39,611 bases of DNA from Syntrophaceae bacterium (lineage in GTDB: Bacteria > Desulfobacterota > BSN033 > UBA1163). A program made the position numbers and the translations under genes. The notes beneath the pieces are model-generated. The model did not search any database and was not told the DNA's origin. It saw only the letters and a program-made list of their open reading frames with translations. Location: the NCBI GenBank assembly GCA_013388645.1, contig JACAEV010000084.1, positions 1-39,611 on the forward strand, written 5' to 3'. Positions 2,521 to 30,206 of the stretch are shown here, in pieces; the stretch's first letter is position 1, and each line of letters opens with the position of its first letter.

Positions 2521-2526
2521 GGCCAT

Positions 2527-14243: not shown

Positions 14244-15071
14244 ATGAAGAATATGTTGACGGTGGATGTGGAGGACTGGTATCACATCTGTGATATCGAA
14301 CATCTTCTTCCGCCTTCTTGCTGGGATCAATGTGAAAGTCGAATCCTATCTAATATCGAGAAGATCCTCACCCTTTTTAACCGGTTTAAAGTTCAAGCCA
14401 CCTTTTTCGTTCTCGGTTACATTGCAGAAAGAATCCCCCAGATGGTGAAGATGATCTATCTCGAAGGACATGAGATCGCTTCCCATGGTTATGGTCATGT
14501 CCAAGTCTACAAGCAGAAGAAAGAGGAGTTTCTTGAGGACCTCCTTCGATCCAAAAACCTGATAGAAGGTCTGATCGGTGAGACCATTATCGGTTACCGT
14601 GCACCCGAGTGGTCGATCTGTGATGAAAGAAAAAACTCTTATTGGGCTCTCGATCTCTTAACTCAGCATGGATTTCTCTACGATTCAAGCATTGCTCCAC
14701 TTCGTTTCATCGGAGTTTCAAATGCACCCCAAATCCCGTACACGATACCGACCGCTTATGGTCAAATTAGAGAGTTTCCTCCTTTGGTCATGCAATCACC
14801 CCTTGGAAATTTACCCATTGGGGGAGGATGGGGATTGCGAGTATTCCCTTATCGAAATATTTGGAAAACCATCGTTCAATTCAACCGTCTGGGTCATCCC
14901 GCTCTGATCTTCTGCCATCCCTCTGAATTCGATACATTTTCCCCTCCCATTGCTCTTCCCTGGATCAAACGGTTTGTCTGTTATGGAAAGATCAGAACGA
15001 CGGAAGAACGATTGACAAGACTCCTGAATGATTTTGAATTCACCATGGTTCGGAGGTTTCTTCTTGGATAA
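14244..15071 (+). CDS. Polysaccharide deacetylase with DUF3473-like C-terminus (XrtA/PEP-CTERM-type)
   Basis: Predicted NodB-fold carbohydrate de-N-acetylase. Motif 1 is MLTVDVEDWYH (catalytic/metal Asp-Glu-Asp), motif 2 is HEIASHGYGH with the two metal His, and motif 3 is YRAPEWS. The C-terminal part with LPIGGGWGLRVFPYR and ALIFCHPSEFD resembles the DUF3473 region of exopolysaccharide deacetylases linked to XrtA systems. The frame is open back to an ATG at 14193, but the family begins at MKNMLTVDVED and an AAAGGA box lies 8 bases before the ATG at 14244; the upstream codons come from a GTTACC-type repeat. 275 residues. It overlaps the next gene by 8 bp. Confidence 0.85.
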   Translation: MKNMLTVDVEDWYHICDIEHLLPPSCWDQCESRILSNIEKILTLFNRFKVQATFFVLGYIAERIPQMVKMIYLEGHEIASHGYGHVQVYKQKKEEFLEDLLRSKNLIEGLIGETIIGYRAPEWSICDERKNSYWALDLLTQHGFLYDSSIAPLRFIGVSNAPQIPYTIPTAYGQIREFPPLVMQSPLGNLPIGGGWGLRVFPYRNIWKTIVQFNRLGHPALIFCHPSEFDTFSPPIALPWIKRFVCYGKIRTTEERLTRLLNDFEFTMVRRFLLG

Positions 15072-15735
15072 AATCTGTATCCTCATCCCTGCCTATAATG
15101 CTCAATCAACGTTGGGCGTTGTTTTAAAAAAGATTGAGCCTCTCAAGATCGATACAGTCGTGGTGGATGACGGGTCTTCCGATGAGACGAAGAAAGTGGC
15201 CTTAGCAAATGGGGCCCTATTGCGTGTGCATCCGACGAACCTTGGGAAAGGGGCAGCCCTCCGGACGGGGTTTCAATATGTCCTGCAGAGAGATTATCAG
15301 CTGGTTATCACTCTGGATGCCGATGGTCAACACGATCCATCCGAAATCCCGTCTCTCCTCACAATATTTCAAAGCGTCAAGGCGGATATCCTCATTGCCT
15401 CTCGGGCCGCCGCATTTGGGGAGATGACGTTCCTCCGTCGGTTCTGGAATCGCCTGGGAGCAAAAGCGGTTTCGCGTCTTTGTCATTCAGATATAACGGA
15501 CAGTCAGTCTGGTTTTCGACTGATTCGGAGCAACGTTCTTAGAGCAGTGGATCTCTCGACATCTCGATTCGAGACGGAGTTGGAGTTCCTGATCAATGCT
15601 TGCAAAAAGGGGTTTCGTGTGTTATCAGTTCCTATTCAGGTCCCCCAGGTCGATGGAACGGCTTCCAGTCATTTCAGGCCTGTGATCGATACGTGGTTAG
15701 TTTGTAAAGTTTTTCTTCGAAGTCTGTTTGGTTGA
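15064..15735 (+). CDS. Family 2 glycosyltransferase (dolichyl/undecaprenyl-phosphate sugar synthase-like)
   Basis: Cytoplasmic-face GT-A enzyme that transfers a sugar from an NDP donor, most like the polyprenyl-phosphate glycosyltransferase subgroup. The start ICILIPAYNAQSTL, nucleotide-binding VVVDDGSSDET, LRVHPTNLGKGAALRTGF, the metal DxD motif in LDADGQHDP, and SQSGFRLIR (QXXRW-like position) are all present. About 223 residues, a soluble single-domain form without a membrane tail. I choose the TTG at 15064 because a GGAGG box lies 8 bases upstream and the start then overlaps the deacetylase stop by 8 bp. An ATG at 15028 in the same frame would add residues unlike the family. Confidence 0.88.
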   Translation: MDKICILIPAYNAQSTLGVVLKKIEPLKIDTVVVDDGSSDETKKVALANGALLRVHPTNLGKGAALRTGFQYVLQRDYQLVITLDADGQHDPSEIPSLLTIFQSVKADILIASRAAAFGEMTFLRRFWNRLGAKAVSRLCHSDITDSQSGFRLIRSNVLRAVDLSTSRFETELEFLINACKKGFRVLSVPIQVPQVDGTASSHFRPVIDTWLVCKVFLRSLFG

Positions 15736-15743
15736 GAAATAAA

Positions 15744-17144
15744 ATGGATTTTTACCAGCGGGCAAAGCGATATTCTATAAAGAAATTTACAACGAGTGCC
15801 TTTTCCCTTCTGGCGAATGCCTCTACCGAAAATTTAATCCGTTTGACCTATCTGGCCGAGAGGATCCCTCAGAAGGATTCTTATCGGGAGAAAATTCGAT
15901 GGATTCGAACTCTCTTCCAGACCGAACATCCGGCTCTGACAATTGCGAGGCGGGTCCTCAGCGAAACCCACCCCATTCATCGAAAGAAACTCATTGCCAA
16001 TTTTATTGTCAATCAACTGCTCGTCGGCACGAATCGAAGGAAGGCGTTTGAGGCGGAAAAAGGCTTCTATCCGCCGGATGCCATGTTGATCAGCCCAACC
16101 ATGCGATGCAATCTCGATTGTTATGGATGTTATGCGGGGGTCTATCCCCAAGAGGATCTTCCTTACAATATCTTGGATCGACTTATGGGCGAATGTAAGG
16201 AGATGGGCATCCATTTGATCCTGATGACAGGTGGTGAGCCGTTTTTGAGAGAGGATCTTTTCGCTCTCTTTGAGAAGCATGAGAACATGATTTTCCAGAT
16301 CTACACCAATGGGACACTGATCGATAAAAAGATGATCGATCGGTTTGTGACGTTGGGCAATGTGGTCCCAGCGATCAGCCTCGAAGGACTGAGAGAAGAA
16401 ACGGATGCGAGAAGGGGCAAGGGGCAGTTCGATCGAATCGTGAAGGTGATGGATGGGCTTCGAGAAGCCGGGATCTTTTTCGCCGTCTCCACGACCCAGA
16501 CCTCCCAAAATACGGATGTGTTGACGAGCGATGCCTTTGTCGATTTTCTGGTAGAGAAGGGATGTATCCTGATTTGGAACTTCCATTATGTCCCTATCGG
16601 AAGAGACCCTGAGCTTTCCCTCATGGTGACGCCCGAGCAGAGGAACCGGACGAGGGAGCGGCTTGCCTATTTTCGGGCGACCAAACCCATCCTCTTCGTT
16701 GACTTCTGGAATGATGGGTGTCTCACGCAAGGATGCATTGCAGCGGGTAGAAAATATTTTCATGTCAACGCCCAAGGCGATGTGGAACCCTGTGTCTTTT
16801 GCCATTTTGCTTCTGATAATATCAAAGAGAAATCTCTCGCGGAGGCGCTCAATTCACCTCTCTTTCGGGAGATTCGATCTCATCAGCCTTTCTCAGAGAA
16901 CTATTTCCGACCCTGCCTTCTAATCGATCACCCACAAGAGGGGAGAACGTTTGCACTTCAACATGCAAAATATTTTACTCATGAAAAGGCAGAGCAGCTT
17001 TTTGTCGATTTTGCACAGGCCATAGATTGCTATGCCCAGGCCTATGGGAGGATTGCGGAGGCGGCATGGAAGGAGAAAATGGAACGTCAACCCCCTCAGC
17101 CTCTCTTTGTCAGGAAAAAGGTAGTGGGTAAACCCGGTTGTTGA
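15744..17144 (+). CDS. Radical SAM protein with SPASM-like C-terminal cysteine region
   Basis: Radical S-adenosylmethionine enzyme, substrate unknown. The [4Fe-4S] motif is RCNLDCYGCYAG (Cys 122, 126, 129), followed by the SAM-contact LMTGGEPFLREDL, IYTNGTLI and AISLEGLREETDARRG. The C-terminal third has further Cys in GCLTQGCIAAG, VEPCVFCHF and FRPCLL, which suggests an auxiliary cluster of SPASM type. A 115-residue N-terminal helical region precedes the radical SAM core. The ATG at 15744 lies 8 bp after the glycosyltransferase stop; a TTG at 15732 is an alternative. It is not a B12-binding type, unlike the four radical SAM genes downstream. Confidence 0.85.
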   Translation: MDFYQRAKRYSIKKFTTSAFSLLANASTENLIRLTYLAERIPQKDSYREKIRWIRTLFQTEHPALTIARRVLSETHPIHRKKLIANFIVNQLLVGTNRRKAFEAEKGFYPPDAMLISPTMRCNLDCYGCYAGVYPQEDLPYNILDRLMGECKEMGIHLILMTGGEPFLREDLFALFEKHENMIFQIYTNGTLIDKKMIDRFVTLGNVVPAISLEGLREETDARRGKGQFDRIVKVMDGLREAGIFFAVSTTQTSQNTDVLTSDAFVDFLVEKGCILIWNFHYVPIGRDPELSLMVTPEQRNRTRERLAYFRATKPILFVDFWNDGCLTQGCIAAGRKYFHVNAQGDVEPCVFCHFASDNIKEKSLAEALNSPLFREIRSHQPFSENYFRPCLLIDHPQEGRTFALQHAKYFTHEKAEQLFVDFAQAIDCYAQAYGRIAEAAWKEKMERQPPQPLFVRKKVVGKPGC

Positions 17145-17238
17145 GCGGATATCCATTCGGTGTCAGTTTCTTTCCGTCATTTAAAAGGGATTACCATTTT
17201 GAGGGTGTCCATTTCATGCAACAATGGAGTAGACATGG

Positions 17239-18339
17239 ATGAAGGTAACCTTTCCCCATCTGGGTTCGATGCATATTTTCTGCAAAGCCATTGCGGAGAC
17301 CGCCGGTATTCCCTATATTGTTCCACCTGAGACTAGCCGAAAAACCCTGACCTTGGGTGCCCTCCACTCCAATGAATGTATCTGTCTTCCATTTAAAATG
17401 ATCTTGGGGAATTTTATTGAAGCCCTGCAGAAAGGAGCCGATACCATCGTCATGGTGGGAAGCGGTCCTCCCTGTCGTTTGGGCCTCTACGATCTTGTTC
17501 AAAAAGTGATTCTGGAGGATATGGGTCTTCATTATCGATGGCTGACCATTCCCCCTCGATTGACCTGGAGGGCCATTTGGAAAAATCATGAAGAAACTAA
17601 AGAATTAAGAAAAGAGTTGAGCGCAAAGAATATTTTTCTCTTTCCTTATGGGCTCTGGATGGGATGGAAGAAGATGATGGCTTGCGAAGCGTTAGAAAAA
17701 TTGGCGATGAAGGTCCGGCCGAGGGAAATCAGTAAAGGAGAAACCCAGAGGAGATGGAGACAGGCTCTTTCTTGGGTCGATGGGGCCAAGACTCCGAAAA
17801 CCCTTGAGGGAGCGGTGAAAAAGGGAAAGACTCTTCTTCAAGAGATGGAACAAGATCATTCCCGAATCCCATTTAAAGTGGCCATCGTGGGTGAACTCTA
17901 CACGGTGATGGACCCGCATATCAATCGAGGCGTGGAACAGAAATTAGGAGAGTTAGGTGTGGAGGTGACCCGCACCTCATGGTTCTCCACCCATATTCTC
18001 AGGAGCGTTCGCCAAAATAAAGCAAATCAAGCTTCAGAGCGTATTCGTTTCTTTGAAGCTTCGAAGGCTTATTTGGATTATGATGTGGGGGCTGAATGTA
18101 ATGTCTCGATCGGTGAGGCCATCTTACGATCCAAAGAGGGATATGATGGGGTTGTCCATCTCATGCCCTTTGCTTGCATGCCAGAGACCACCGCCTCAGG
18201 AATCCTGAACAAGGTTGGGAAGGACTGGGACATCCCCATTCTCACTCTCATTTTAGATGAGCAAGAAATTGAGGGCCGAATTCAGACACTGCTGGAAGCC
18301 TTTGTGGAGATGTTGGAATGGAAAAAAGGGGTCGCATAG
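17239..18339 (+). CDS. CoA-dehydratase-activase-related protein (COG3580-like, 2-hydroxyacyl-CoA dehydratase superfamily)
   Basis: Cys-containing protein of the family associated with BcrAD-type ATPases and related to HgdB-like dehydratase/reductase subunits. Candidate Fe-S ligands are in NECICLPFKM, SGPPCRLG, GAECNVSIG and MPFACMPE. A second half begins with VAIVGELYTVMDPHINRGVE, the hallmark of this family. 366 residues. An ATG at 17239 with GGAG 9 bases upstream is used. It overlaps the next gene by 22 bp and is clearly co-translated with it. It probably forms, with its neighbour, the Fe-S component that receives electrons from the activase at 19379. The substrate cannot be inferred. Confidence 0.75.
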   Translation: MKVTFPHLGSMHIFCKAIAETAGIPYIVPPETSRKTLTLGALHSNECICLPFKMILGNFIEALQKGADTIVMVGSGPPCRLGLYDLVQKVILEDMGLHYRWLTIPPRLTWRAIWKNHEETKELRKELSAKNIFLFPYGLWMGWKKMMACEALEKLAMKVRPREISKGETQRRWRQALSWVDGAKTPKTLEGAVKKGKTLLQEMEQDHSRIPFKVAIVGELYTVMDPHINRGVEQKLGELGVEVTRTSWFSTHILRSVRQNKANQASERIRFFEASKAYLDYDVGAECNVSIGEAILRSKEGYDGVVHLMPFACMPETTASGILNKVGKDWDIPILTLILDEQEIEGRIQTLLEAFVEMLEWKKGVA

Positions 18340-19310: not shown

Positions 19311-19331
19311 TATAGTTAAAAAAAGGACCAT

Positions 19332-19371
19332 GAGACGAAGTGGCTACAAGACGACTGAACTACGGGACTAA
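19332..19371. repeat. Octamer tract before the activase gene
   Basis: Five successive 8-mers are in phase: GAGACGAA, GTGGCTAC, AAGACGAC, TGAACTAC, GGGACTAA. The core GAC-A recurs at the same position of each unit. The tract ends 7 bases before the activase ATG and leaves no room for an ordinary ribosome site. Confidence 0.65.
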
Positions 19372-19378
19372 ATAAATT

Positions 19379-20335
19379 ATGGGAAACTATTTAGGCATTG
19401 ATGTGGGATCCATCACGACCAAGTCAGTCATACTTGGGCAAGACGATCAGGTCCTAGCCAAATCTTATATCCGTAACAGTGGTCGGCCTATCGAAGCCAT
19501 CCAGAAAGGGTTGGAGGAAGTTTTAGCCCAAGTGGGAGGATCCATTTCCATTCATGGAGTGGGAACCACTGGTAGTGCCAGGCATTTAGCGGCCTATTTG
19601 GTGGGGGCAGATCTTATCAAAAATGAGATTACGGCTCATGCCATTGCGGTGGTTGATTTTCTTCCTGAGGCAAAGACCATCATTGAAATTGGTGGTCAGG
19701 ATTCAAAGATCATTGTATTGAGAAACGGCGTCGTCGTTGATTTTGGGATGAACACGGTCTGTGCGGCGGGCACTGGATCTTTTTTAGATCAACAAGCTAC
19801 CAGACTTGGAATCTCCATCGAAGCCTTTGGGGATCTCGCCCTTCAAGCTGATCACCCTGTTCGAATCGCTGGCCGATGCACGGTTTTTGCCGAAACAGAC
19901 ATGATTCATAAGCAACAGATTGGACATTCTGTGGAGGATATTGTCGCTGGTCTCTGCGACTCCTTGGTGAAGAATTATCTAAATAATGTCGGTCGAGGGA
20001 AAGAAATGCTTTCACCGATTGTCTTTCAAGGAGGTGTGGCAGCGAATCGAGGCATCCAAAAAGCGCTTGAGAGAGAGTTGGAAGTTTCTCTCGTCATCCC
20101 GAAACATTTCGATGTCATGGGAGCGATCGGCGCTGCCAAATTGGTAAAGAGGGCCAATCTTTTTAAAACCCAATTTAGAGGGTTCGATCTTACTCAAAAA
20201 TCCTGTTCCACTCGGGGATTCGAATGTAGTGAATGTGAAAACCAATGCGAAGTGATTGAGCTTCTGATGAACCATCATGTGGTCGCCTGCTGGGGCGATC
20301 TCTGTGAACGATATCGGCACCGTGAGAAAGCATAG
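19379..20335 (+). CDS. Acyl-CoA dehydratase-type activase (BcrAD/BadFG ATPase, archerase)
   Basis: ASKHA-fold ATPase that injects a low-potential electron into a partner Fe-S protein at the cost of ATP. The phosphate-1 loop is LGIDVGSITTKSVIL, and IIEIGGQDSKIIVL is the second conserved block. The dimer-bridging [4Fe-4S] ligands are Cys128 in MNTVCAAGTGSF and Cys167 in AGRCTVFAETDM. VFQGGVAANRGIQKAL is the adenosine-site block. At 318 residues it is about 50 longer than simple activases: the tail carries SCSTRGFECSECENQC and ACWGDLCERY, a Cys-rich extension that could hold another cluster. It pairs with the two preceding Cys proteins. Confidence 0.9.
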   Translation: MGNYLGIDVGSITTKSVILGQDDQVLAKSYIRNSGRPIEAIQKGLEEVLAQVGGSISIHGVGTTGSARHLAAYLVGADLIKNEITAHAIAVVDFLPEAKTIIEIGGQDSKIIVLRNGVVVDFGMNTVCAAGTGSFLDQQATRLGISIEAFGDLALQADHPVRIAGRCTVFAETDMIHKQQIGHSVEDIVAGLCDSLVKNYLNNVGRGKEMLSPIVFQGGVAANRGIQKALERELEVSLVIPKHFDVMGAIGAAKLVKRANLFKTQFRGFDLTQKSCSTRGFECSECENQCEVIELLMNHHVVACWGDLCERYRHREKA

Positions 20336-20350
20336 AGTTTGAGATCAGGA

Positions 20351-20420: not shown

Positions 20421-20448
20421 TTTCTTCACTTTGACCCATGGAATAAAT

Positions 20449-21819
20449 ATGAACATCCTCCTCATCAATCCAGCTCCGACAGGGACGCTCAAAGCGACAG
20501 GAGTTCTCTTCCCGCCCCTGGGGATTCTCTACCTTGCAGGATATATAGAAAGGGAGGGATATCGGGTTGATGTGATAGACTTAGCGGTTCGAAAAAGGCA
20601 AAAAGGCCTCGATTTCAAAAAATATGACCTTGTCGGAATTTCCACAGATACGACCCGCCATCGACAAGCTCTCCGGCTGGCTGAAAAGGCCAAAAAACGT
20701 GGTTGCACAGTGGTCATGGGGGGACCTCACCCCGGTTATGTGGATGAAGAAATTCTTTCCACTCAAAAAGTTGATTTCATCGTCCACGGGGAAGGGGAGA
20801 TCACTTTTTCAGAATTAGTCTCTGCCGTACAGAAAAAAGATGGGAATTTCGATTCCATCAAGGGAATCAGTTTTTTCCATAAAGGGCAAGTGGTAAGAAC
20901 TCCTCCCAGGCCCTTCCTGGAGGATCTGAACAGCCTCCCTTTTCCTGCTAGGCACCTGATCGATATGGATGATTATCGGAGGACCAAATTAGGAGGTCGG
21001 CCCATCACCCCCTTGATCACCAGCCGTGGATGTCCATACCGTTGTGCTTTCTGTGCCTCTTCCCACTTTTGGGGAACAAAGGTCAGGATGAGGAGTGTGG
21101 AGGCGATTTTAAAAGAGCTTGAAGAGCTCTATGGCCGATATCATTTTAACGCGGTAGCTTTTTTAGATGATACTTTTAATGTCTTTCCACAGAGGGTCGC
21201 GGATCTTTGTCGTGGAATAATTGAGAGAAAACTTGACTTATGGTGGTGGTGCTTATCCCGGGCAGATCTCCTGCTTCGAAACGAAAGGATGGTCAGCGAG
21301 ATGGTCAGGGCAGGGGCGAAGTCTATTTTCATCGGCGTCGAATCTCCCCACCCAAAGACTCTGGAAGAACTCAAAAAGGGGATAGACGTAGAAGACATGA
21401 TTCAAACAGTGACGATGCTTAAACGGAATGGTCTGGAAATCCATGCAGCCTATATCTTAGGGGGACTTCGTGAGACGGCCAAGACGATTCATGAGACCAT
21501 CCGCTTTGCTAAGAGGCTTGATACCAATGTCGCCCAGTTTTCCATCCTCACCCCTTATCCGGGCACCGCCATCTACGAACAGGTAAAGGATCGAATCTTC
21601 CAATGGAGATCACCGTGGTCATTTTTCGATATGCAGCATCTTGTATTTAAACACGACCATCTCTCTTTCATTCGGATGGAATGGCTTTTGTTGAAGGCTC
21701 ATCTCCTTTACTATACCCGGTCAAAACAGGCGATTCAGGACCTTTGGCATCATATCCGGAAACATCGGCTGGGTATCCGGACCCTTCTCCGTTTTTTAAG
21801 AGACCAATTCTGGGGTTGA
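20449..21819 (+). CDS. B12-binding domain radical SAM protein (first of four)
   Basis: Cobalamin-binding radical SAM enzyme of the class that includes hopanoid and lipid-modifying methylases. Residues 1-150 form the B12-binding-type Rossmann domain (MNILLINPAP, PPLGILYLAGYIEREGYRV, MGGPHPGYVDEEIL, VHGEGE). The radical SAM motif CPYRCAFC has Cys 195, 199 and 202, followed by VAFLDDTFN and FIGVESPHPKTLEELKKG. The C-terminal region (RLDTNVAQFSILTPYPGT) is typical. 456 residues from the ATG at 20449; a TTG at 20431 is possible but lies in poor context. It ends 1 base before the acyltransferase start, so the two are translationally coupled, which favours a lipid or acyl substrate. Confidence 0.88.
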   Translation: MNILLINPAPTGTLKATGVLFPPLGILYLAGYIEREGYRVDVIDLAVRKRQKGLDFKKYDLVGISTDTTRHRQALRLAEKAKKRGCTVVMGGPHPGYVDEEILSTQKVDFIVHGEGEITFSELVSAVQKKDGNFDSIKGISFFHKGQVVRTPPRPFLEDLNSLPFPARHLIDMDDYRRTKLGGRPITPLITSRGCPYRCAFCASSHFWGTKVRMRSVEAILKELEELYGRYHFNAVAFLDDTFNVFPQRVADLCRGIIERKLDLWWWCLSRADLLLRNERMVSEMVRAGAKSIFIGVESPHPKTLEELKKGIDVEDMIQTVTMLKRNGLEIHAAYILGGLRETAKTIHETIRFAKRLDTNVAQFSILTPYPGTAIYEQVKDRIFQWRSPWSFFDMQHLVFKHDHLSFIRMEWLLLKAHLLYYTRSKQAIQDLWHHIRKHRLGIRTLLRFLRDQFWG

Positions 21820-21820
21820 T

Positions 21821-22732
21821 ATGGGAGAACGCCACCCTCGATCTCTTAATCGGTTTATCTATCTCTTTTTCTTTCAATTCTGTTCCACACTCATCCCTAG
21901 ATCATTTCAGAAGTTCTTCAGTGTGGTGGTGGGAGATCTTTTTTACCTCCTGATGAAAGAGACAAGAGCCCATGTCCGAGAAAATATGGAAGGGGTGAGC
22001 AGAGGAAGATGGTCAAAGGGGAAAATAGATGTTCTCACACGAAAAACTTTTCAGAACTACGGCCAATACCTTTTGGATTATATGGTCATGCATCGTCTGC
22101 GTCCATCCAATAAGGACCGATGGGTTGAGGAAGAGGTCGGAGGTGACTATATGAGCGAAGCTCTTCGGGCAGGAAGAGGGGTGATCTGTATTACACCCCA
22201 TCTTGGAAATTGGGAGATTGGAGGACTGCTCTTTTCCTTTAAGGGAGGAAAGCTCAATGTGCTCACCCTCGATGAGAGAGATTTGAATATTCGCTCTTTT
22301 CGGGAAGAGATGAGAAGGAGTAAGGGGATCAAAAATCTCTATATTCATCCGAAGGATGAATCTCCGATGGCTATTTTGGATGCAGTGAAGGCGCTTCGAA
22401 GAAATGAAATCGTGGCGATGTTGGGAGATCGTATCGAGTCTCAAAAAACCATGGTCTTCGATTTCTTTGGGAGAAAAACAAATTTTCCCATCGGGGTGGC
22501 CATTCTCGCCATGGCTACGGAAGCCCCTGTTCTTCCCGTCTTTGTGGTGATGGAAAAAAATCGAAAATATAAAGGAATGATTGAACCTCCCATCTATTTT
22601 AACTCCTCATCGAGAGAAGATCGTGAAGCGGTCATGAGGGAGGGAATGGAAAAACTCATCCAAAAATTTGAAGACTATATCGAAAAATACCCAGATCAAT
22701 GGTATAATTTTTATTCTTATTGGAGTGAATAA
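21821..22732 (+). CDS. LpxL/HtrB-type lysophospholipid/lipid A acyltransferase
   Basis: Membrane-associated acyltransferase that moves an acyl chain from ACP to a hydroxyl group. The catalytic HX4E motif is in TPHLGNWEIGG, the second block is GDRIESQKTMVFDFFGRK, and the C-terminal segment DQWYNFYSYW matches the family end. A hydrophobic N-terminal anchor (FIYLFFFQFC) is present. 303 residues, normal length. It sits between a B12 radical SAM gene and the ACP gene, so the acyl donor is probably the dedicated ACP at 22815 rather than only the housekeeping one. It could be an ordinary late lipid A acyltransferase, but its context argues for a specialised lipid. Confidence 0.85.
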   Translation: MGERHPRSLNRFIYLFFFQFCSTLIPRSFQKFFSVVVGDLFYLLMKETRAHVRENMEGVSRGRWSKGKIDVLTRKTFQNYGQYLLDYMVMHRLRPSNKDRWVEEEVGGDYMSEALRAGRGVICITPHLGNWEIGGLLFSFKGGKLNVLTLDERDLNIRSFREEMRRSKGIKNLYIHPKDESPMAILDAVKALRRNEIVAMLGDRIESQKTMVFDFFGRKTNFPIGVAILAMATEAPVLPVFVVMEKNRKYKGMIEPPIYFNSSSREDREAVMREGMEKLIQKFEDYIEKYPDQWYNFYSYWSE

Positions 22733-22814
22733 AAAAGGTTCAAGTGGCGAGCCGGTCTGCGGTAGGCATAAATCCTTGAAACCTCGGTGATGATTAACAG
22801 GAGAAAAAAAGAGA

Positions 22815-23087
22815 ATGGTTGTGCCAAACGATCAACTGATCGAAGACGTCAAACAACTGATCATCCAGCGATTAAAACTCATGGATATGACGCCGGAGAT
22901 GATTGAGACGGATGCCCCTCTTTTTGGGGAAGGACTCGGATTGGACTCCATCGATGCCCTTGAACTCGTCTTGGGTCTGGAAAAAGAGTTTGGGGTCATC
23001 ATTCCTGATGCAGAGGTTGGAAAAAAAGTCTTTCAGTCCGTCAGAACGATCGCTCAATACGTTTGTGAATCCCGGGGGGCAACATGA
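22815..23087 (+). CDS. Acyl carrier protein
   Basis: Small acidic carrier for acyl chains on 4'-phosphopantetheine. The attachment site is Ser45 in GLGLDSIDALELV, a clear DSI(D/E) motif. 90 residues, with the usual four-helix spacing (VKQLIIQRL at the start, EFGVIIPDAEVGKKVF in the middle). AGGAG lies 10 bases upstream of the ATG. The stop overlaps the next gene start by 4 bases (ATGA), so ACP and acyltransferase are made together. It is not the housekeeping acpP: the sequence is divergent and the neighbours are cluster genes. Confidence 0.93.
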   Translation: MVVPNDQLIEDVKQLIIQRLKLMDMTPEMIETDAPLFGEGLGLDSIDALELVLGLEKEFGVIIPDAEVGKKVFQSVRTIAQYVCESRGAT

Positions 23088-24031
23088 CGCCATCCAAAGG
23101 GAAGATTGCTTTTTGTTTCCCTGGTCAACTTCAGGACAGGCCCATATTGGAGGGCAACCATCCCCTAAAGGGGGATCCTCATCTTGAAGAATTATTGAAG
23201 AGGGCATCTCGTCAGACTCAATTCAACTTCCACAATTTTTCCTTCGAAGGGGAGAAAAAGAACGAGGAAGAGAAAAAGGATTTCAGTCTTAAGCTTCAGA
23301 TCTCGACCTACCTCCTTTCCATGGCTCACTTCTACCGTCTTCGAGCGACAGGATGGGTCCCGGATATTTTTGCTGAACATAGTATGGGGATTTATGCCGC
23401 CTTGGCCGCTTCAGAAGCCATCGATTTTGAGGAGGGTCTCTTCATCACCGAGGGCATTGGCCGACTTCTTAAAAAAGAAGGAGAACTTCATCCGGGAGGC
23501 ATGGCCAGCATCATCGGTCTTCCCTTAGAGGAAATCCAAAAAATCTGTCGAGACCTCAATGGCTTTCATCTCTTTATCGCTAATTATAATGGGTCGATGC
23601 ATTTTGTTCTTTCCGGCGAAGAAGAAGGAATAGGAAAAGCGATTTCCCTGGCCCTTTCGAGGAAGGCGATCTCCGCCAGCAAACTTCCATTTCGTACAGC
23701 TCTTCATTCCCCTTCTCTTTACGCTTTAAGGGAAAAAATCATAGAGATCCTTCAGGAGATCAAGATCCAACCGCTCAAAGTCCCCATCCTGAATCATTGG
23801 ACCATTAAACCCTTGAGAAGAGAAGAGGTCAAAGATTTTCTCTCCCGAGAAATCGGGCGCCCTGTTTATTGGGTTCGTTGTGTTGAGAAATTGCTCCAGG
23901 AAGGGTTTACTCAATTCATTGAAGTAGGACAGGAAGCAATACTAACCAAATTGATTCGATGGATTGACCGTGAGGCAGAAGCTTTCTCTGCTGGGGATCT
24001 CTTAGCAAATAAAGGGTTGGTCTCTCGATAG
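23084..24031 (+). CDS. FabD-like ACP S-acyltransferase (malonyl transferase family)
   Basis: Acyltransferase that loads malonyl or another acyl unit onto ACP. The start KIAFCFPGQL matches the family (FPGQG). The nucleophile elbow is AEHSMG with Ser100; the usual first Gly of GHSxG is Glu here. His about 207 in RTALHSPSLY is the catalytic His position, and the Arg expected to hold the malonyl carboxylate is not obvious in the usual place. 315 residues. It overlaps the ACP gene by 4 bases. The altered elbow and missing clear Arg suggest a substrate other than malonyl-CoA; this is inference. Confidence 0.82.
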   Translation: MTPSKGKIAFCFPGQLQDRPILEGNHPLKGDPHLEELLKRASRQTQFNFHNFSFEGEKKNEEEKKDFSLKLQISTYLLSMAHFYRLRATGWVPDIFAEHSMGIYAALAASEAIDFEEGLFITEGIGRLLKKEGELHPGGMASIIGLPLEEIQKICRDLNGFHLFIANYNGSMHFVLSGEEEGIGKAISLALSRKAISASKLPFRTALHSPSLYALREKIIEILQEIKIQPLKVPILNHWTIKPLRREEVKDFLSREIGRPVYWVRCVEKLLQEGFTQFIEVGQEAILTKLIRWIDREAEAFSAGDLLANKGLVSR

Positions 24032-24059
24032 AGGTTAAGATGCCAGTTCTGTCATTCGG

Positions 24060-24156: not shown

Positions 24157-24212
24157 ATTGTTCAAGGGGCACGGAGCCATCACAAAATATGGGTGAGTAA
24201 AGAGGATGTGAG

Positions 24213-24635
24213 ATGAAATACCATGAGACATTCCTACAGGTCCGATTTTATGAAGTGGATATGTATGGAATGGTTTGGCATGGGCACTATATGGGTTGGT
24301 TCGAGATGGGCCGAAATGATCTAACTCAGAGATTTCAGATGGGTCCCCTTCAGCTTAAAGAGAGGAGTCTTTTGGCACCGGTGGTAGAATTGGATTGCCA
24401 GTTCAAGCTACCAGCCACTTTTAGAGATTCCCTCTTGATCCAGACCACGATGGAGAAGACAGAGGTGGCTAAACTGATCTTTCGCTATCGGATTCTCAAT
24501 CAAGAAAACCGAAAGATTCTCGCCACCGGCTCCACCACGCATGTCCTCACTGATCTGGAAGGAAATCTTCTCTACCGAGTCCCTCCAGAGGTGCTCGAAA
24601 AAATTGAGGCCATGCAGAAGTATTTGGAGGTGTAG
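24213..24635 (+). CDS. 4-hydroxybenzoyl-CoA-type hotdog thioesterase (YbgC/FcbC-like)
   Basis: Predicted acyl-ACP or acyl-CoA thioesterase. The catalytic-loop signature is RFYEVDMYGMVWHGHYMGWF, with the Asp and the following Gly-x-Val-x-His-x-x-Tyr pattern of the 4HBT family. 140 residues, one hotdog domain. A GAGG-like box is seen upstream (AGAGGATGTGAG). It probably releases the chain made by the ACP/AT/KS/KR set, or clears mis-loaded carriers. The stop codon lies in the left arm of a hairpin. Confidence 0.85.
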   Translation: MKYHETFLQVRFYEVDMYGMVWHGHYMGWFEMGRNDLTQRFQMGPLQLKERSLLAPVVELDCQFKLPATFRDSLLIQTTMEKTEVAKLIFRYRILNQENRKILATGSTTHVLTDLEGNLLYRVPPEVLEKIEAMQKYLEV

Positions 24636-24710
24636 CGCGGTAGCGTAGCGTTGGCATTTACTGCCGACGAAATGTTCTTTTATCCGTCCCCAATAAATGG
24701 GGGCGCTACA
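24632..24710. repeat. Hairpin-forming spacer with 8-bp terminal inverted repeat
   Basis: TGTAGCGC (24632-24639) and GCGCTACA (24703-24710) are perfect complements flanking the spacer. Inside are CCGTCCCCAAT, also found at the end of the 30207-30271 palindrome, and the local repeat GTAGCGCGGTAGCGTAGCG. The element spans the whole gap between the thioesterase stop and the next start codon. Confidence 0.5.
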
Positions 24711-24717
24711 AAAAAAC

Positions 24718-26202: not shown

Positions 26203-26299
26203 GCAGTGAATAGCATTTAAGAAGGTGACATGGAACAGGCAGAAGATAGAAATGAAAGATCTTTACTCCGAACCCCGAACTCCGAACTCCGAACTAAGA
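26139..26299. repeat. Inverted heptamer arms across a gene boundary
   Basis: The left arm (26139-26169) reads TTCGGAG, TCATGAG, TTCGGAG, TCGGGAG. The right arm (26264-26299) reads ACTCCGA, ACCCCGA, ACTCCGA, ACTCCGA, ACTAAGA. The arms are complementary and lie inside the 3' end of one radical SAM gene and the 5' end of the next. It is the same heptamer as at 12791-12865. Confidence 0.8.
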
Positions 26300-27672
26300 A
26301 ATTGAAAAGGGTTCTTCTCATTTTTCCCAGGGAGAGAGGGATTAAATTTTCCAATGACACCCTTTATCCTTTTCCCATCTTAGGTCTTACTCTTCTTGCC
26401 GCTCTTTTTCCAAAAACCTATGAAGTGAAGATCCTCAATGAGGTGATTGAGGAAGTTGATTTCGATGCGGAGGTTGATTTAGTCGGGATTACTGGTCTGA
26501 CCTGTGTCATCAAAAGAGCCTATGAAATTGCCGACCGGTTCCGTGAGAGAGGGGTGAAGGTGATGTTGGGAGGGGTTCACCCGAGCCTTTTACCCGAGGA
26601 GGCAAAAGAGCATGCGGACTCTGTATTCATCGGAGAAGCTGAGGGGATGCTACATAAAGTGATCGCAGATTTTGAATCCGGGGATCTTAAGCCGTTTTAT
26701 AAGAATCGGGAGTGGTCGGATTTGAAGGGAATGCCCCTTCCAAGAAGAGATCTTTTGAATAAACGCTATCGGCCTTTTTTTAAAGTGATTGAAACGACTC
26801 GAGGGTGTCCAAATCGTTGTGAATTTTGCTCTGTTCCTATCATCAATGGAAAACGTTATCGGCTTCGTCCCCTTGAAGAGATCGATCAGGAGCTTTCTAC
26901 GATCATCCACAAAAAGGGAGAATATCTCTTCTTATCTGATGATAATGTGACAGCTAGGCAGGATTACGCTTTTGGTCTCTTCGAAATCTTTAAGCGCCAC
27001 AGCGTGAAGTGGATGGGATTTACAACGATCCAGATCGCTACGAATGAAAAACTTCTTGAGAAGGCACGAGAGAGCGGTTGTATCTCTCTTTTCATCGGTT
27101 TTGAATCCCTTCTTCAGGAGAATCTGGACAATGTTTCAAAACGATTTGTGGATACTAAAGAATTGTCGAATTTAGTTAAAACCATTCAATCCCATCGTAT
27201 CGGAATCCAGGGTGCCTTCATTTTTGGATTCGATGGAGATGATCCAACCATCTTTAAGAAAACGGTCGAATTCGTCCAGAAGAACAACATCGACCTTCCC
27301 ACGTTCTCTGTTCTCACACCCTTTCCTGGGACTCCACTGTTTTACCGTTTGGAAAGGGAAGAAAGTATTTTTGACCGCAACTGGTCGCATTATGATATGA
27401 GCCATGTGGTTTTCAAACCGAAAAAGATGACCGTTCAGGAACTTCAGGAAGGATACCTCTGGGCACAGAAATATATCTGTGCCCCTCGATCGATATTGAA
27501 ACGGCTACTCTGGGGGCCCAAGCATCACTTTTTTCATTTCTTGATGTCGAATTTTGTCTTGAGGGGTGCCCAGATGGCTGTGATTCGAAGGATCAGAAAA
27601 GAAGAGATGCCAAAGCCACCAATAACTAAATTACAATCATCAAATAATCAACAAGGGTACAAGGACCAATGA
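26230..27672 (+). CDS. B12-binding domain radical SAM protein (third of four)
   Basis: Cobalamin-binding radical SAM enzyme. The recognisable protein starts around residue 25 (LKRVLLIFPRERG); residues 11-23 (SLLRTPNSELRTK) are translated from a heptamer repeat, so either the repeat invaded the 5' end or the true start is downstream. The N-terminal domain has VMLGGVHPSLLPEEA and FIGEAEG. The cluster motif is CPNRCEFC with Cys 193, 197 and 200. FLSDDNVTA, FIGFESLLQENL and the LTPFPGTPLFYRL end-of-barrel segment follow. The C-terminal tail from ITKLQSS is again repeat-encoded. 480 residues as translated. Confidence 0.86.
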   Translation: MEQAEDRNERSLLRTPNSELRTKKLKRVLLIFPRERGIKFSNDTLYPFPILGLTLLAALFPKTYEVKILNEVIEEVDFDAEVDLVGITGLTCVIKRAYEIADRFRERGVKVMLGGVHPSLLPEEAKEHADSVFIGEAEGMLHKVIADFESGDLKPFYKNREWSDLKGMPLPRRDLLNKRYRPFFKVIETTRGCPNRCEFCSVPIINGKRYRLRPLEEIDQELSTIIHKKGEYLFLSDDNVTARQDYAFGLFEIFKRHSVKWMGFTTIQIATNEKLLEKARESGCISLFIGFESLLQENLDNVSKRFVDTKELSNLVKTIQSHRIGIQGAFIFGFDGDDPTIFKKTVEFVQKNNIDLPTFSVLTPFPGTPLFYRLEREESIFDRNWSHYDMSHVVFKPKKMTVQELQEGYLWAQKYICAPRSILKRLLWGPKHHFFHFLMSNFVLRGAQMAVIRRIRKEEMPKPPITKLQSSNNQQGYKDQ

Positions 27673-27780
27673 TCAACCGTTCTGACTCAGTTTGGTTATT
27701 GATGAATGGGATGGATTCCTAAACCTGTTGGGAACAGGTTTGTAGCTTGATTATTGATAATGGGTGATTAAGGAGTAACG
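27612..27780. repeat. CAA-type heptamer runs flanking a perfect 9-bp hairpin
   Basis: 7-mers ending in CAA (for example GGACCAA, TGATCAA near 27662) are followed by complementary TTGGTTATTGATG-like sequence. In the middle, AAACCTGTT (27721-27729) and AACAGGTTT (27733-27741) form a perfect stem with a GGG loop. There is no T tract after the stem, so it is not a clear terminator. The stop codon of the third B12 radical SAM gene lies in the left part. Confidence 0.55.
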
Positions 27781-27795
27781 GAAATTTAGTTCGTC

Positions 27796-29196
27796 ATGAA
27801 AGTTCTACTTATCTCCGTCAACCGTGAGAGGATGCCTTTTCCTGTTTTTCCACTGGGTTTGGCATACATCGTCAGGGGATTAAGGGAAGGGGGCCATCAG
27901 ATTGAAATCATGGATCTTTGTTTCTCTCAAGAGGTTTCCGTTGATCTTAACAAAACCCTTCTTCGATTTCAGCCCAACCTGATTGGGATTTCTCTGAGAA
28001 ATCTCGATAATCTTACCTATCCCACCTCCGTCTCTTATCTCGAAGAGGTAGAAGAGGTGATTAAAATTTGTCGTCAATCCACCTCGTCGCCAATCGTCAT
28101 AGGAGGTTCGGGATATTCTCTGGCTCCCAAAGAGCTTCTTCAGCACTTTGATGTCGATTTTGGAATTGTAGGAGAAGGAGAAGAAGTTTTTCTCCAATTC
28201 GTAAAATCCATTGAAAAGGGTGACCCCATTTCCCCATCTCCTTATTTCCTCATTAAGGGAAAGCCTTATCCTCCTATGATAGAAGGTGGACGGGTCTATC
28301 CTGTCCGACATCCTGATCGAGCCCTTTTTGAAACGCGTCGTTATTTAGAGGAAGGAGGAATGGCAAACATTCAAACGAAACGAGGCTGCCCTTTCTCCTG
28401 CGTCTATTGCACTTATCCTCTATTGGAAGGTAAGGAGATTAGGACGAGAAAGACGGAGGAGGTGATTGAGGAAATCAGACAGCTTGTTGAGGAAGGAGTG
28501 GATTATATTTACTTTGTGGACGATATTTTTAATTATCCTCCTTCTTATACTGAAGCGTTATGTCGTGAAATGGTTCAAAGAAAATTCAATGTCAAATGGA
28601 GTGCTTTTGTCAATCCAAGTTTTTTAACCGGAAGCCTTTTGAATTGGATGAAAGAGGCGGGATGTGAGGGGATTGAATTTGGAACGGATTCAGGATCCCC
28701 TCAGATGCTCGAAAATTATAAGAAATCATTTACTCAAGAGGATATTATTCGATCATCAAACATCTGTTCAAAACTGAATGTCAACTACTGTCACTATCTT
28801 CTCTTCGGGGGTCCAGGGGAAAACGAAGAGACGATTGAGGAGTCTTTTCGGTTGATGGATCAACTCGATCCAACAGCGATCATTGCCATGTTGGGTATCC
28901 GAATCTATCCAGGAACGGAAATGGAACAAATCTCCCTTTCTCAGGGGGTGATCCAACAGGATGCTCTTCTCATCTATCCCCATTTTTATATCTCCCCAGA
29001 ATTAGGAGGAAGGTTGAGTGAAATCGTTCAGGAGAAAGCCCTTGCGAGAAAGAAATGGATCGTCCCTGGGTTGGAAATTAACATCACGCAGAATCTGATC
29101 GAGCAAATCAGGAGATTTCGAATTCGAGGACCTTTATGGGAATTGGTGGGAAGAATGAAGAAGCCAAGAGTCGGCCCCCTCCGGGACCTGAAATGA
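27796..29196 (+). CDS. B12-binding domain radical SAM protein (fourth of four)
   Basis: Cobalamin-binding radical SAM enzyme. The N-terminal domain (MKVLLISVNRERMPFPVFPL, GLAYIVRGLREGGHQI, IVIGGSGYSLAPKELL, IVGEGEE) is followed by the cluster motif CPFSCVYC with Cys 198, 202 and 205. IYFVDDIFNYPPSY and IEFGTDSGSPQML are the usual radical SAM strands. The C-terminal half (IYPGTEMEQISLSQGV) is shared with enzymes found in lipid-biosynthesis gene sets. 466 residues. The start has no strong ribosome site; it follows a repeat-rich spacer. Confidence 0.88.
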   Translation: MKVLLISVNRERMPFPVFPLGLAYIVRGLREGGHQIEIMDLCFSQEVSVDLNKTLLRFQPNLIGISLRNLDNLTYPTSVSYLEEVEEVIKICRQSTSSPIVIGGSGYSLAPKELLQHFDVDFGIVGEGEEVFLQFVKSIEKGDPISPSPYFLIKGKPYPPMIEGGRVYPVRHPDRALFETRRYLEEGGMANIQTKRGCPFSCVYCTYPLLEGKEIRTRKTEEVIEEIRQLVEEGVDYIYFVDDIFNYPPSYTEALCREMVQRKFNVKWSAFVNPSFLTGSLLNWMKEAGCEGIEFGTDSGSPQMLENYKKSFTQEDIIRSSNICSKLNVNYCHYLLFGGPGENEETIEESFRLMDQLDPTAIIAMLGIRIYPGTEMEQISLSQGVIQQDALLIYPHFYISPELGGRLSEIVQEKALARKKWIVPGLEINITQNLIEQIRRFRIRGPLWELVGRMKKPRVGPLRDLK

Positions 29197-29198
29197 TT

Positions 29199-29239
29199 TA
29201 AACACTAAACACTAAACACTAAACTCTAAACTCTAAACC
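29199..29239. repeat. AAACACT heptamer tandem
   Basis: Near-perfect tandem 7-mers AACACTA, AACACTA, AACACTA, AACTCTA, AACTCTA immediately follow the stop of the fourth B12 radical SAM gene. It is the cleanest heptamer run in the window and has no inverted arm next to it. Confidence 0.8.
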
Positions 29240-29243
29240 TTTA

Positions 29244-29337
29244 CCCTGTTAAGTAATCATGTATGAAATTGATGGTTTCACTTTTCCGAAGGGCCATGGA
29301 AATCAAACCAGAAATAATTCTTCTGTACTTAACAGGG
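29244..29337. repeat. MITE-like 94-bp element with 12-bp terminal inverted repeats
   Basis: CCCTGTTAAGTA (29244-29255) and TACTTAACAGGG (29326-29337) are perfect complements. The interior is itself imperfectly palindromic (GATGGTTT facing AAATCAAACC). No coding capacity. The size and terminal repeats resemble a miniature inverted-repeat element, but no target-site duplication is obvious and no second copy is in the window. Confidence 0.55.
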
Positions 29338-29349
29338 CGAGCAAATGCA

Positions 29350-29455
29350 ACATCTAAAACTCAAAAGATTATTCGGTTTTGAAGTTTGTACTTTGCCTGC
29401 CTGCCGGTAGGCAGGGGGTTTTGAGTTTAGGATTTAAAATCAATACTTAAAACTG
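29350..29455. repeat. Heptamer arms around a GC-rich palindrome before fabG-like gene
   Basis: CTAAAACTCAAAA (29354-29366) faces TTTTGAGTTTAG (29419-29430), and the right arm continues as 7-mers TTTGAGT, TTAGGAT, TTAAAAT, CAATACT, TAAAACT. Between them lies a GC-rich dyad CCTGCCGGTAGGCAGG (29398-29414). This is a palindrome in a palindrome ending just before the ribosome site of the next gene. Confidence 0.55.
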
Positions 29456-29465
29456 GAGGATGACC

Positions 29466-30206
29466 ATGCTGCTTAAAGATAAGGTGGCTATTGTCACAGG
29501 GGGTACGAAAGGTATTGGAAAGGCGATTTGTCTTCTCTTGGCTGAGGAAGGGGCAAGCGTCATTGCTAATTTCTCAAAGGATGTGGAGGCTGCAGAAGAT
29601 TTGATGAGCGAGGCAAAATCAAAAGGATTGAGCATAGGCTTGTTTAAAGCCGATATCACTCAGTTCGATCAGGTAAAAGAGATGGTGGAAGAGACCTTTG
29701 CTCAATACGGAAAGATTGATATCTTGGTGAATAATGTGGGCGTTGTCCGGGATAACTTCCTCATGTTGATGAGTGATGAGGATTGGGATTCCCTTCTCAG
29801 AACCAATCTGACCAGTCTCTTTTATTGTTGCAAAACTGTGATCCGGAAGATGATTCCGCAGAGAAGAGGAAAAATCATCAATATCTCTTCCATCAGCGGG
29901 ATTTTGGGAACTTCAGGCCAGACGAATTATGCGGCAACCAAAGGAGGCGTGATTAGTTTTACGAAATCCCTTGCTCGGGAGCTGGGTCCTCTCAATATTC
30001 ATGTCAATGCCGTGGCTCCGGGATTGATCGAATCAGAAGTGGTGTCCAAGATGCCTAAGGAGAAAGTGGAGGCCATTATCAAATCCTCCAGCCTCGGAAG
30101 GGTTGGAAAGCCTGAAGAAGTCGCTCAGGCTGTGCTCTTTCTGGCGTCAGAGCGTTCAGACTACATCACCGGCCAAACCATTGTCGTAGACGGAGGAATT
30201 GTTTAA
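29466..30206 (+). CDS. FabG-like 3-oxoacyl-ACP reductase (SDR family)
   Basis: NAD(P)H-dependent short-chain dehydrogenase, most likely reducing a 3-ketoacyl-ACP. The cofactor motif is [19 protein letters not shown] is the NNAG-like block; the catalytic Ser and YxxxK are in [10 protein letters not shown] and TNYAATKGG; and the C-terminus [13 protein letters not shown] is the FabG end. About 246 residues. The ATG at 29466 is chosen because GGAGG (29455-29459) sits 6 bases upstream, whereas the ATG at 29460 directly abuts that box. It is the last gene of the collinear block before the accessory island, and its natural partner ketosynthase is found beyond the island at 37511. Confidence 0.9.

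What the first reader, a model, noticed from the sequence alone, without database searches (positions are those of the whole stretch)
14244..30206. Candidate new lipid/glycolipid pathway: ACP-AT-TE-KR set with four B12 radical SAM enzymes and an electron-injection module
A single-strand block joins a dedicated ACP, FabD-like AT, thioesterase, FabG-like reductase and LpxL-like acyltransferase with four cobalamin-binding radical SAM proteins, one SPASM-like radical SAM protein, a DUF2229/COG3580/activase trio and sugar enzymes; the ketosynthase sits at 37511. Established precedents for B12 radical SAM enzymes acting on lipids are HpnP and HpnR (hopanoid methylation) and GrsA/GrsB (ring formation in archaeal lipids). 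Several overlaps and 1-8 bp gaps support co-expression in parts. The product, for example a methyl-branched, cyclised or cross-linked acyl chain, is inference. No dehydratase (FabZ) gene is seen, so chains may keep 3-hydroxy groups or use a housekeeping FabZ.
Basis: partly seen in the sequence, partly recalled or inferred. Interest (0 to 1): 0.78.

Follow-up and report, generated by a model that had tools for sequence, protein, structure and literature searches.

The report
Ladderane-type lipid cluster, split ether-lipid reductase
This stretch of an uncultured anaerobic bacterium's genome encodes an assembly line for an unusual membrane lipid, of the same general kind as the gene sets suspected of making the 'ladder' lipids of anammox bacteria, here combined with its own three-gene version of the enzyme family that makes ether-linked lipids; the product is unknown.

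Summary
The cluster is real and conserved. Thirteen related loci keep the order SPASM, DUF2229a, DUF2229b, activase, (B12r1), LpxL, ACP, AT, TE, B12r2, B12r3, B12r4, FabG, (KS), as far as their contigs reach. Its class is not new: B12r4 passes the curated model TIGR04072 (lipid biosynthesis B12-binding/radical SAM protein), and similar radical-SAM/type II fatty-acid clusters were reported in 2009 from Kuenenia, Desulfotalea, Geobacter and Pelobacter.

Additions and corrections: (1) the 'missing' dehydratase is FabZ at a second locus of the same genome, with a CrtI-like desaturase, methyltransferases and FabF paralogues with dead active sites; (2) the ATP-grasp gene at 12870 belongs to the cluster, and B12r1 is optional; (3) the AT lacks FabD's malonate-binding arginine; (4) the 'electron-injection' trio is a complete PlsA/Ger-type enzyme (plasmalogen synthase/glycerol ester reductase) split into three genes, besides a fused Ger-like gene elsewhere. 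Split copies form one clade and occur only in genomes with TIGR04072-like genes (19/19 versus 98/278).

Best reading: an anaerobic ladderane-type (glyco)lipid pathway with a dedicated ester-to-ether reductase. The class is well supported; the ether step is inference. Ladderane lipids include ethers, so this is a testable lead.

The parts
12870..14036 (+). ATP-grasp ligase-like protein; first gene of the cluster (role of ligating a head-group part is inference)
   Evidence: Pfam ATP-grasp; present in the same 15 of 17 family genomes as the cluster; adjacent to related clusters in L052, L059, L066
14193..15071 (+). Polysaccharide deacetylase with DUF3473 (alternative start 14244)
   Evidence: PF01522, PF11959; below TIGR03006 cut-off; co-located in related clusters
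15028..15735 (+). GT2 glycosyltransferase
   Evidence: PF00535; co-located in related clusters
15732..17144 (+). Radical SAM/SPASM protein of no curated family
   Evidence: PF04055, PF13186; CxxxCxxC at 126; best NCBIfam hit far below cut-off; PDB hits are peptide maturases and MoaA/viperin-type
17239..18339 (+). DUF2229a: Red2 (C-terminal reduction domain) part of a split PlsA/Ger-type enzyme
   Evidence: PF09989; aligns to residues 1018-1399 of the fused protein, cysteines kept with one shifted by a residue
18318..19310 (+). DUF2229b: Red1 (middle reduction domain) part of the split PlsA/Ger-type enzyme
   Evidence: PF09989 159 bits; aligns to residues 689-1000 of the fused protein; clade of split copies
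19379..20335 (+). Activase (Act part): ATP-driven electron donor of the split enzyme
   Evidence: TIGR00241 over cut-off; PF01869; about 50% identical to both Act domains of the fused protein; PDB: activators of 2-hydroxyacyl-CoA dehydratases and methylbenzoyl-CoA reductase
20431..21819 (+). B12r1: B12-binding radical SAM, BchE/HpnJ-like, optional in the cluster
   Evidence: PF02310, PF04055; below all cut-offs; 7 of 17 genomes
21821..22732 (+). LpxL/HtrB-type acyltransferase
   Evidence: PF03279; HLGNWE motif conserved
22815..23087 (+). Dedicated acyl carrier protein
   Evidence: PF00550; NF006617 over cut-off; DSxD site conserved
23084..24031 (+). FabD-like acyltransferase lacking the malonate-binding Arg
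   Evidence: PF00698; EHSMG Ser and LHSP His kept, Ile in place of Arg
24213..24635 (+). 4HBT (hot-dog) thioesterase
   Evidence: PF13279
24697..26202 (+). B12r2: B12-binding radical SAM, BchE-like; absent from the related clusters of other families
   Evidence: below BchE cut-off 235.6/481
26230..27672 (+). B12r3: B12-binding radical SAM; homologues also at the second locus (40-45%)
27796..29196 (+). B12r4: lipid biosynthesis B12-binding/radical SAM protein (TIGR04072)
   Evidence: 390.7 bits, cut-off 360
29460..30206 (+). FabG-type ketoreductase
   Evidence: TIGR01830 296.9 of 297.75; YxxxK conserved
37511..38734 (+). FabF-type ketosynthase with intact Cys-His-His
   Evidence: TIGR03150 420 of 494, PRK07314 over cut-off; next to FabG in L006, L010, L011; motifs

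Best explanation
This is one of two co-occurring loci for an anaerobic, ladderane-type type II fatty-acid/polyketide (glyco)lipid pathway. Proposed working: the unusual AT loads a non-malonyl acyl unit onto the dedicated ACP. The KS and FabG here, with FabZ, further ketosynthases and a CrtI-like desaturase from the second locus, build a functionalised, probably unsaturated chain. The B12 radical SAM enzymes methylate it and/or form C-C bonds. LpxL transfers it to a lipid or sugar acceptor shaped by the GT2, deacetylase and ATP-grasp enzymes. The split PlsA/Ger-type enzyme (activase + Red1 + Red2) uses ATP-driven electrons to reduce the resulting ester to an alkyl or vinyl ether. Shown here: gene content, conservation, family membership, residue states, the second locus, the split-Ger architecture and its association with TIGR04072-like genes. 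Inferred: every reaction, the order of steps and the product.
For: Conserved gene order; TIGR04072 over cut-off; second locus with FabZ, CrtI-like, methyltransferases, LolA and KS genes in 13/15 cluster genomes and 0/2 others (KS; CrtI-like 11/15 and 0/2; content); dead KS copies with Phe163/Glu333 as in Kuste2805 (with PMC2649909); trio equals Act-Red1-Red2 of a fused Ger-like protein with cysteine positions kept (architecture in PMC12838417, and PMC13274423); split copies are one clade found only in genomes with TIGR04072-like genes; split Red1 directly before KS in six f12 loci and the trio on a ladderane-type contig in G232; tested Ger/PlsA members make ethers from esters (PMC11150832, PMC12838417); AT lacks the malonate-binding Arg.
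Against: No product is known for any non-anammox member; Desulfotalea made no ladderanes (PMC2649909). Trio identity to the fused Ger-like proteins is only 25-27% in the reduction domains, so the substrate may differ. The family genomes already hold a fused Ger-like gene, so ether formation alone would not need the trio. The association test treats related genomes as independent (family-level about 0.009), and the match list was truncated at its weak end. In G250 the trio is not seen next to the cluster.
Confidence: 0.45

Rival explanations
1. Same class of pathway, but the trio is a 2-hydroxyacyl-CoA dehydratase/benzoyl-CoA-reductase-type enzyme acting on the starter or the chain while bound to CoA or ACP (removing a hydroxyl or reducing an aryl ring), not an ether-forming enzyme.
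For: Both DUF2229 proteins have weak HGD-D matches; the activase resembles activators of such enzymes. In family f12 the B12r4-FabG pair lies beside two proteins resembling the 2-hydroxyisocaproyl-CoA dehydratase subunits in L060, L062, L119, L120 and apparently L117, not in L116 and L118. A CoA ligase sits beside the trio in L115.
Against: The closest domain-for-domain match is the Ger/PlsA family, whose tested members act on lipid esters; HGD-D matches are below the gathering score. The f12 pair may belong to a neighbouring TRAP/CoA-ligase catabolic operon.
Confidence: 0.25
2. The product is an aryl-polyene-like outer-membrane glycolipid or pigment made anaerobically, with the radical SAM enzymes only methylating it.
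For: The ACP passes NF006617, a family which to my knowledge includes aryl-polyene ACPs; KS with dead KS partner, FabZ-like, LolA, LpxL, GT2 and TE occur together in related clusters; an HpnN-like MMPL exporter adjoins the trio in G135.
Against: No ammonia-lyase or other aryl-starter gene was seen among the genes read; three to four B12 radical SAM enzymes and the Ger-type trio are not part of known aryl-polyene clusters (own knowledge); KS matches FabF models better than PRK09185.
Confidence: 0.18
3. The bacterium makes true ladderane (fused cyclobutane) lipids.
For: TIGR04072 over cut-off; FabZ, CrtI-like, methyltransferase, dead KS with Phe163/Glu333.
Against: Clusters of this class are widespread (63 of 297 genomes over the TIGR04072 cut-off); Desulfotalea with a syntenic cluster made no ladderanes (PMC2649909); the literature associates ladderanes with anammox bacteria only (PMC9902471).
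Confidence: 0.04
4. The trio is a passenger: two independent operons (ATP-grasp to SPASM, and LpxL to FabG) with the trio inserted by chance.
For: Gaps of 68-95 bp at the borders of the trio; related clusters in other families lack the trio.
Against: The trio is kept at the same place in all family loci that cover it. In related clusters SPASM is followed directly by LpxL and ACP, so left and right parts belong together. Split DUF2229b abuts KS in f12 and the trio lies on the ladderane-type contig in G232.
Confidence: 0.05

Closest known systems
Ladderane-type radical SAM/FASII clusters of Kuenenia stuttgartiensis and Desulfotalea psychrophila, with similar ones in Geobacter and Pelobacter (Rattray et al. 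2009, PMC2649909)
   Same: FabF paralogues including dead ones with Phe163/Glu333, FabZ, FabG, ACP, CrtI-like oxidoreductase, methyltransferase, several radical SAM enzymes, glycosyltransferase, polysaccharide deacetylase; TIGR04072 over cut-off
   Different: Split over two loci; carries a split Ger/PlsA-type trio that I did not find mentioned in that paper; AT and LpxL in the core; one CrtI-like gene at the second locus of the window genome as far as its contig goes; product not shown
PlsA/PlsR plasmalogen synthase and Ger glycerol ester reductase (PMC12838417, PMC11150832, PMC13274423)
   Same: Act, Red1 and Red2 parts all present with conserved cysteine positions; activase about 50% identical to the fused Ger-like protein of the same family genomes
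   Different: Three separate genes in the order Red2-Red1-Act, a single Act; separate clade from fused copies; 25-27% identity in the Red parts; embedded in a fatty-acid/radical-SAM cluster; activity untested
Aryl polyene clusters
   Same: ACP family, KS with dead partner, KR, TE, LpxL-type acyltransferase, GT2, LolA in relatives
   Different: No aryl-starter genes seen; several B12 radical SAM enzymes; Ger-type trio
BchE, HpnJ, HpnR (B12 radical SAM enzymes with known or assigned substrates)
   Same: B12-binding plus radical SAM domains; these are the best-scoring named profiles for B12r1-r3
   Different: All scores far below the curated cut-offs
FabD malonyl-CoA:ACP transacylase
   Same: Fold family, catalytic Ser and His
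   Different: Malonate-binding Arg replaced by Ile in all aligned family orthologues; the genome has a separate normal FabD

Membership tests
Ladderane-type radical SAM/FASII cluster | Member of TIGR04072 (lipid biosynthesis B12-binding/radical SAM protein) | tested here: met
   B12r4 390.7 bits against 360
Ladderane-type radical SAM/FASII cluster | Several FabF paralogues, some with altered active sites | tested here: met
   Window KS intact; second-locus KS copies with Cys163 to Phe or Glu/Ser and both His lost, in G000 and G045; values compared with Table 2 of PMC2649909
Ladderane-type radical SAM/FASII cluster | FabZ, FabG, ACP and phytoene-desaturase-like oxidoreductase | tested here: met
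   FabG and ACP in the window; FabZ (L124, also ORF in L129) and CrtI-like (L128) at the second locus; CrtI-like is below the TIGR02734 cut-off, 182 of 238
Ladderane-type radical SAM/FASII cluster | Direct homology of each protein to the Kuenenia and Desulfotalea proteins | not tested
   No named anammox or Desulfotalea sequence was available; PDB searches with FabZ and a methyltransferase did not single out anammox entries
Ladderane-type radical SAM/FASII cluster | Ladderane lipid product | not testable with these tools
   Needs lipid analysis; Desulfotalea, with a syntenic cluster, lacked ladderanes (PMC2649909)
PlsA/Ger ester reductase | Activation domain(s) plus two reduction domains (Act, Red1, Red2) | tested here: met
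   Three genes covering all parts; fused homologue in the same genome
PlsA/Ger ester reductase | Conserved cluster-binding cysteines | tested here: met
   Positions kept in the alignment with the fused protein and other split copies, one shifted by one residue
PlsA/Ger ester reductase | Two Act domains (proposed mark of alkyl-ether-forming Ger, PMC13274423) | tested here: not met
   One activase gene in the cluster; I therefore say 'PlsA/Ger-type', not Ger
PlsA/Ger ester reductase | Placement in a tree with characterised PlsA and Ger proteins | not tested
   Characterised sequences not available here; only unnamed fused homologues of the phylum were used
PlsA/Ger ester reductase | Reduction of lipid esters to (vinyl) ethers | not testable with these tools
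   Needs an assay
FabD malonyl transacylase | Malonate-binding Arg (E. coli Arg117) present | tested here: not met
   Ile in the window and in ten aligned family orthologues
HpnR, HpnJ or BchE | Curated equivalog score | tested here: not met
   All four B12 radical SAM proteins far below cut-off
Aryl polyene cluster | Genes for an aryl starter (e.g. ammonia-lyase) | tested here: inconclusive
   None seen in the window or at the second locus as read, but the genome was not searched for them

The most novel reading that the evidence does not exclude
Ladderane-type pathways can come with their own ester-to-ether reductase: the split DUF2229/activase trio makes the ether bond of a radical-modified acyl chain. 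It would be a new sub-class of the PlsA/Ger family devoted to one pathway, and a candidate for the unexplained ether step of this class of lipids.
Probability: 0.3. Interest if true: 0.78.

Novelty: new variant of a known kind. Interest (0 to 1): 0.56.

Why it matters
What ladderane-type clusters make outside anammox bacteria has been open since 2009, and how the ether bonds of ladderane lipids form is not explained in the papers read here. A conserved, compact locus that pairs such a cluster with a split enzyme of a family already shown to work in E. coli under anaerobic conditions gives a concrete, expressible hypothesis for both questions, and a genomic marker (split Red1/Red2 next to TIGR04072 or KS genes) with which to look for it elsewhere.

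Tried and rejected
Rejected: 'new class of pathway' (published 2009). 'No dehydratase' (FabZ at the second locus). 'KS separate from the cluster' (adjacent in L006, L010, L011). SPASM protein as a tetraether-synthase relative: solved hits are peptide maturases, cytosylglucuronate decarboxylase and MoaA/viperin-type enzymes. A link between B12r1 and the fused Ger-like gene on G300:C159 (unrelated genes between): taken as chance. Led nowhere: AlphaFold models of DUF2229a and b from shallow alignments were poor (pLDDT 51.5 and 46.1), so no fold search was run. phmmer of DUF2229b against the PDB gave only chance hits. PDB searches with second-locus FabZ and methyltransferase did not single out anammox proteins.
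Full report
WHAT IS THERE. The window is a whole contig (G000:C166) of a 3.95 Mb, 250-contig genome assembly. Related loci with names come from uncultured deltaproteobacterial MAGs such as Syntrophaceae bacterium UBA2188 and UBA2208 and Deltaproteobacteria bacterium RBG_16_49_23. Gaps inside 14193-30206 are -44 to 263 bp.

CONSERVATION. Querying B12r4 returned 13 close relatives at 58-85% identity (two further hits were distant). Mapping all window proteins onto them shows one conserved order: SPASM, DUF2229a, DUF2229b, activase, (B12r1), LpxL, ACP, AT, TE, B12r2, B12r3, B12r4, FabG, then KS and an isocitrate-dehydrogenase-like gene where seen. L013, the most distant of the 13, keeps only B12r4 and FabG. 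B12r1 is missing from most loci and was found in 7 of 17 family genomes. In 17 genomes of the same family, the split DUF2229 gene is present in 15 and absent from two, G081 and G111; B12r4 follows the same pattern, except that in G192 only a distant paralogue was found. The ATP-grasp gene at 12870 shows the same 15/2 split, and homologues sit beside related clusters in L052 and L066, so I extend the cluster to 12870. KS lies close behind FabG in L006, L010 and L011; in the window a 7.3 kb stretch separates them, holding a PIN-like/antitoxin-like pair, short ORFs and a beta-propeller-repeat protein.

CLASS. B12r4 passes TIGR04072, 'lipid biosynthesis B12-binding/radical SAM protein', with 390.7 bits against 360. 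Of 297 genomes of the phylum, 63 have a member over the cut-off, the best at about 650 bits. Neighbourhoods of 40 such hits show a broad family of clusters. In G025, G063, G287, G246 and G202 the order is PSdeac, GT2, SPASM, LpxL, ACP, B12r3, AT, TE, B12r4, then (where the contig continues) FabG, KS and a second KS, with LolA-like (L070, L072) and FabZ-like (L072) proteins further along, and without the DUF2229 trio, B12r2 or B12r1. The highest-scoring loci (L047, L048, L050, L086) carry several KS, ACP, GT2 and LpxL genes around B12r4, mostly with B12r3 or TE. Rattray et al. 2009 described such clusters in Kuenenia and Desulfotalea, and similar ones in Geobacter and Pelobacter, and found no ladderanes in Desulfotalea (PMC2649909). 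'Ladderane' clusters are also reported from many non-anammox phyla with unknown function (PMC9902471). The class is therefore known; its product outside anammox is not.

SECOND LOCUS. A ketosynthase 46-49% identical to the window KS occurs in 13 of the 15 cluster genomes and in neither of the other two. In G045 its locus reads acyl-CoA dehydrogenase-like, dead KS, small membrane protein, FabZ, two methyltransferases, LolA, KS, dead KS and, further on, the start of a CrtI-like oxidoreductase, with a B12r3-like radical SAM gene upstream. In the window's own genome a matching set is split over contigs C214 and C154. The CrtI-like gene occurs at 64% identity or more in 11/15 and 0/2. The dead KS copies replace Cys163 by Phe (or by Glu/Ser) and have lost both His; Phe163 and Glu333 are the values listed for Kuste2805 in Table 2 of PMC2649909. 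This answers the 'no FabZ' point and strengthens the ladderane-type assignment.

THE TRIO. All family genomes except G297 also hold a DUF2229 gene of about 1,260-1,455 aa elsewhere. Those read here have two activase domains followed by two reduction domains, the architecture reported for plasmalogen synthase and Ger (Act1, Act2, Red1, Red2: PMC12838417; two activation domains in validated Ger: PMC13274423). The window genome's copy is cut by a contig end. The window's three genes align to the parts of that protein: activase to Act (about 50% identity), DUF2229b to Red1 (27%), DUF2229a to Red2 (25%), with cysteine positions kept, one shifted by one residue. They are thus a complete split version in reversed order. 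Among the DUF2229b matches listed for 297 phylum genomes, stand-alone copies occur in this family, family f12, G142, G288, G232 and G250. All these genomes have a TIGR04072-like gene: 19/19 against 98/278, Fisher p = 8e-9. This treats genomes as independent; by family it is 6 of 6, about 0.009 against a genus-level base rate. The list was truncated at its weak end, and for G143, G169, G142, G232 and G250 the frame lengths come from the table. The sampled split copies form one clade against the fused ones, support 100/99, with several long branches. In six f12 loci DUF2229b is followed directly by KS and a second KS. In G232 the whole trio lies on the same contig as the high-scoring B12r4, beside a CoA ligase. 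In G250 the trio stands on a contig without other cluster genes.

ENZYME STATES. KS, FabG, ACP and LpxL keep their catalytic motifs. All four B12 radical SAM proteins and the SPASM protein keep CxxxCxxC. The AT keeps Ser and His but has Ile where FabD has its malonate-binding Arg, in the window and ten aligned family orthologues (Ile or Val in two others); the genome's separate FabD has GHSLG and RLRGRFMQ. B12r1-r3 match BchE, HpnJ and HpnR profiles only far below cut-off, so neither methylation nor ring formation can be assigned.

MECHANISM. Most likely: AT loads a non-malonyl unit; KS, FabG and the second-locus FabZ and KS proteins extend it; CrtI-like and B12 radical SAM enzymes desaturate, methylate or join carbons; LpxL moves the chain to a lipid or sugar acceptor prepared by GT2, deacetylase and ATP-grasp; the split Ger-type enzyme reduces the ester to an ether. 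Tested members of the PlsA/Ger family turn glycerol esters into vinyl or alkyl ethers (PMC12838417; [quoted passage not shown] PMC12235221). All chemistry is inference from families. The main rival keeps the pathway but gives the trio a dehydratase or aryl-reductase role, favoured by the dehydratase-like pair beside B12r4 in most f12 loci.

VERDICT. Observation confirmed; interpretation partly supported; a new variant of a known kind. The interesting part, which I found in none of the papers read, is the recurrent tie between ladderane-type genes and a split clade of the ester-reductase family.

Noticed in passing
30376-31100 (-): PIN-domain-like protein and a small antitoxin-like partner overlapping by 4 bp, in the stretch that separates FabG from KS; no NCBIfam match for the larger one.
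   Followed up: partly
34018-37479 (-): 1153-aa secreted-looking protein with DUF7948, SBBP beta-propeller repeats, a G/D/N-rich repeat region and a CARDB domain.
   Followed up: no
7828-8607 (-): TIM-barrel protein whose best NCBIfam hit is the cobamide-remodelling enzyme CbiR (72 of 105 bits, below cut-off); curious so near a B12-dependent cluster.
   Followed up: no
1813-7536 (-): Branched-chain amino-acid-type ABC transporter operon (two ATPases, two permeases, binding protein), read from the sequence only.
   Followed up: no
L060, L062, L119, L120, probably L117 (family f12): B12r4-FabG lies beside a pair resembling 2-hydroxyisocaproyl-CoA dehydratase subunits, a CoA ligase and in some a TRAP transporter; not in L116 or L118.
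   Followed up: partly
L113 (G135), 5814-8390: HpnN-like MMPL lipid exporter adjoining a fused DUF2229b-a gene and an activase.
   Followed up: partly
L127 (G300:C159): B12r1 homologue (82%) on the same contig as the fused Ger-like gene, with unrelated genes between.
   Followed up: partly
L131 (G000:C106): Housekeeping fatty-acid operon with PlsX, FabD, FabG and FabF, and an acyl-CoA dehydrogenase-like gene between PlsX and FabD.
   Followed up: no
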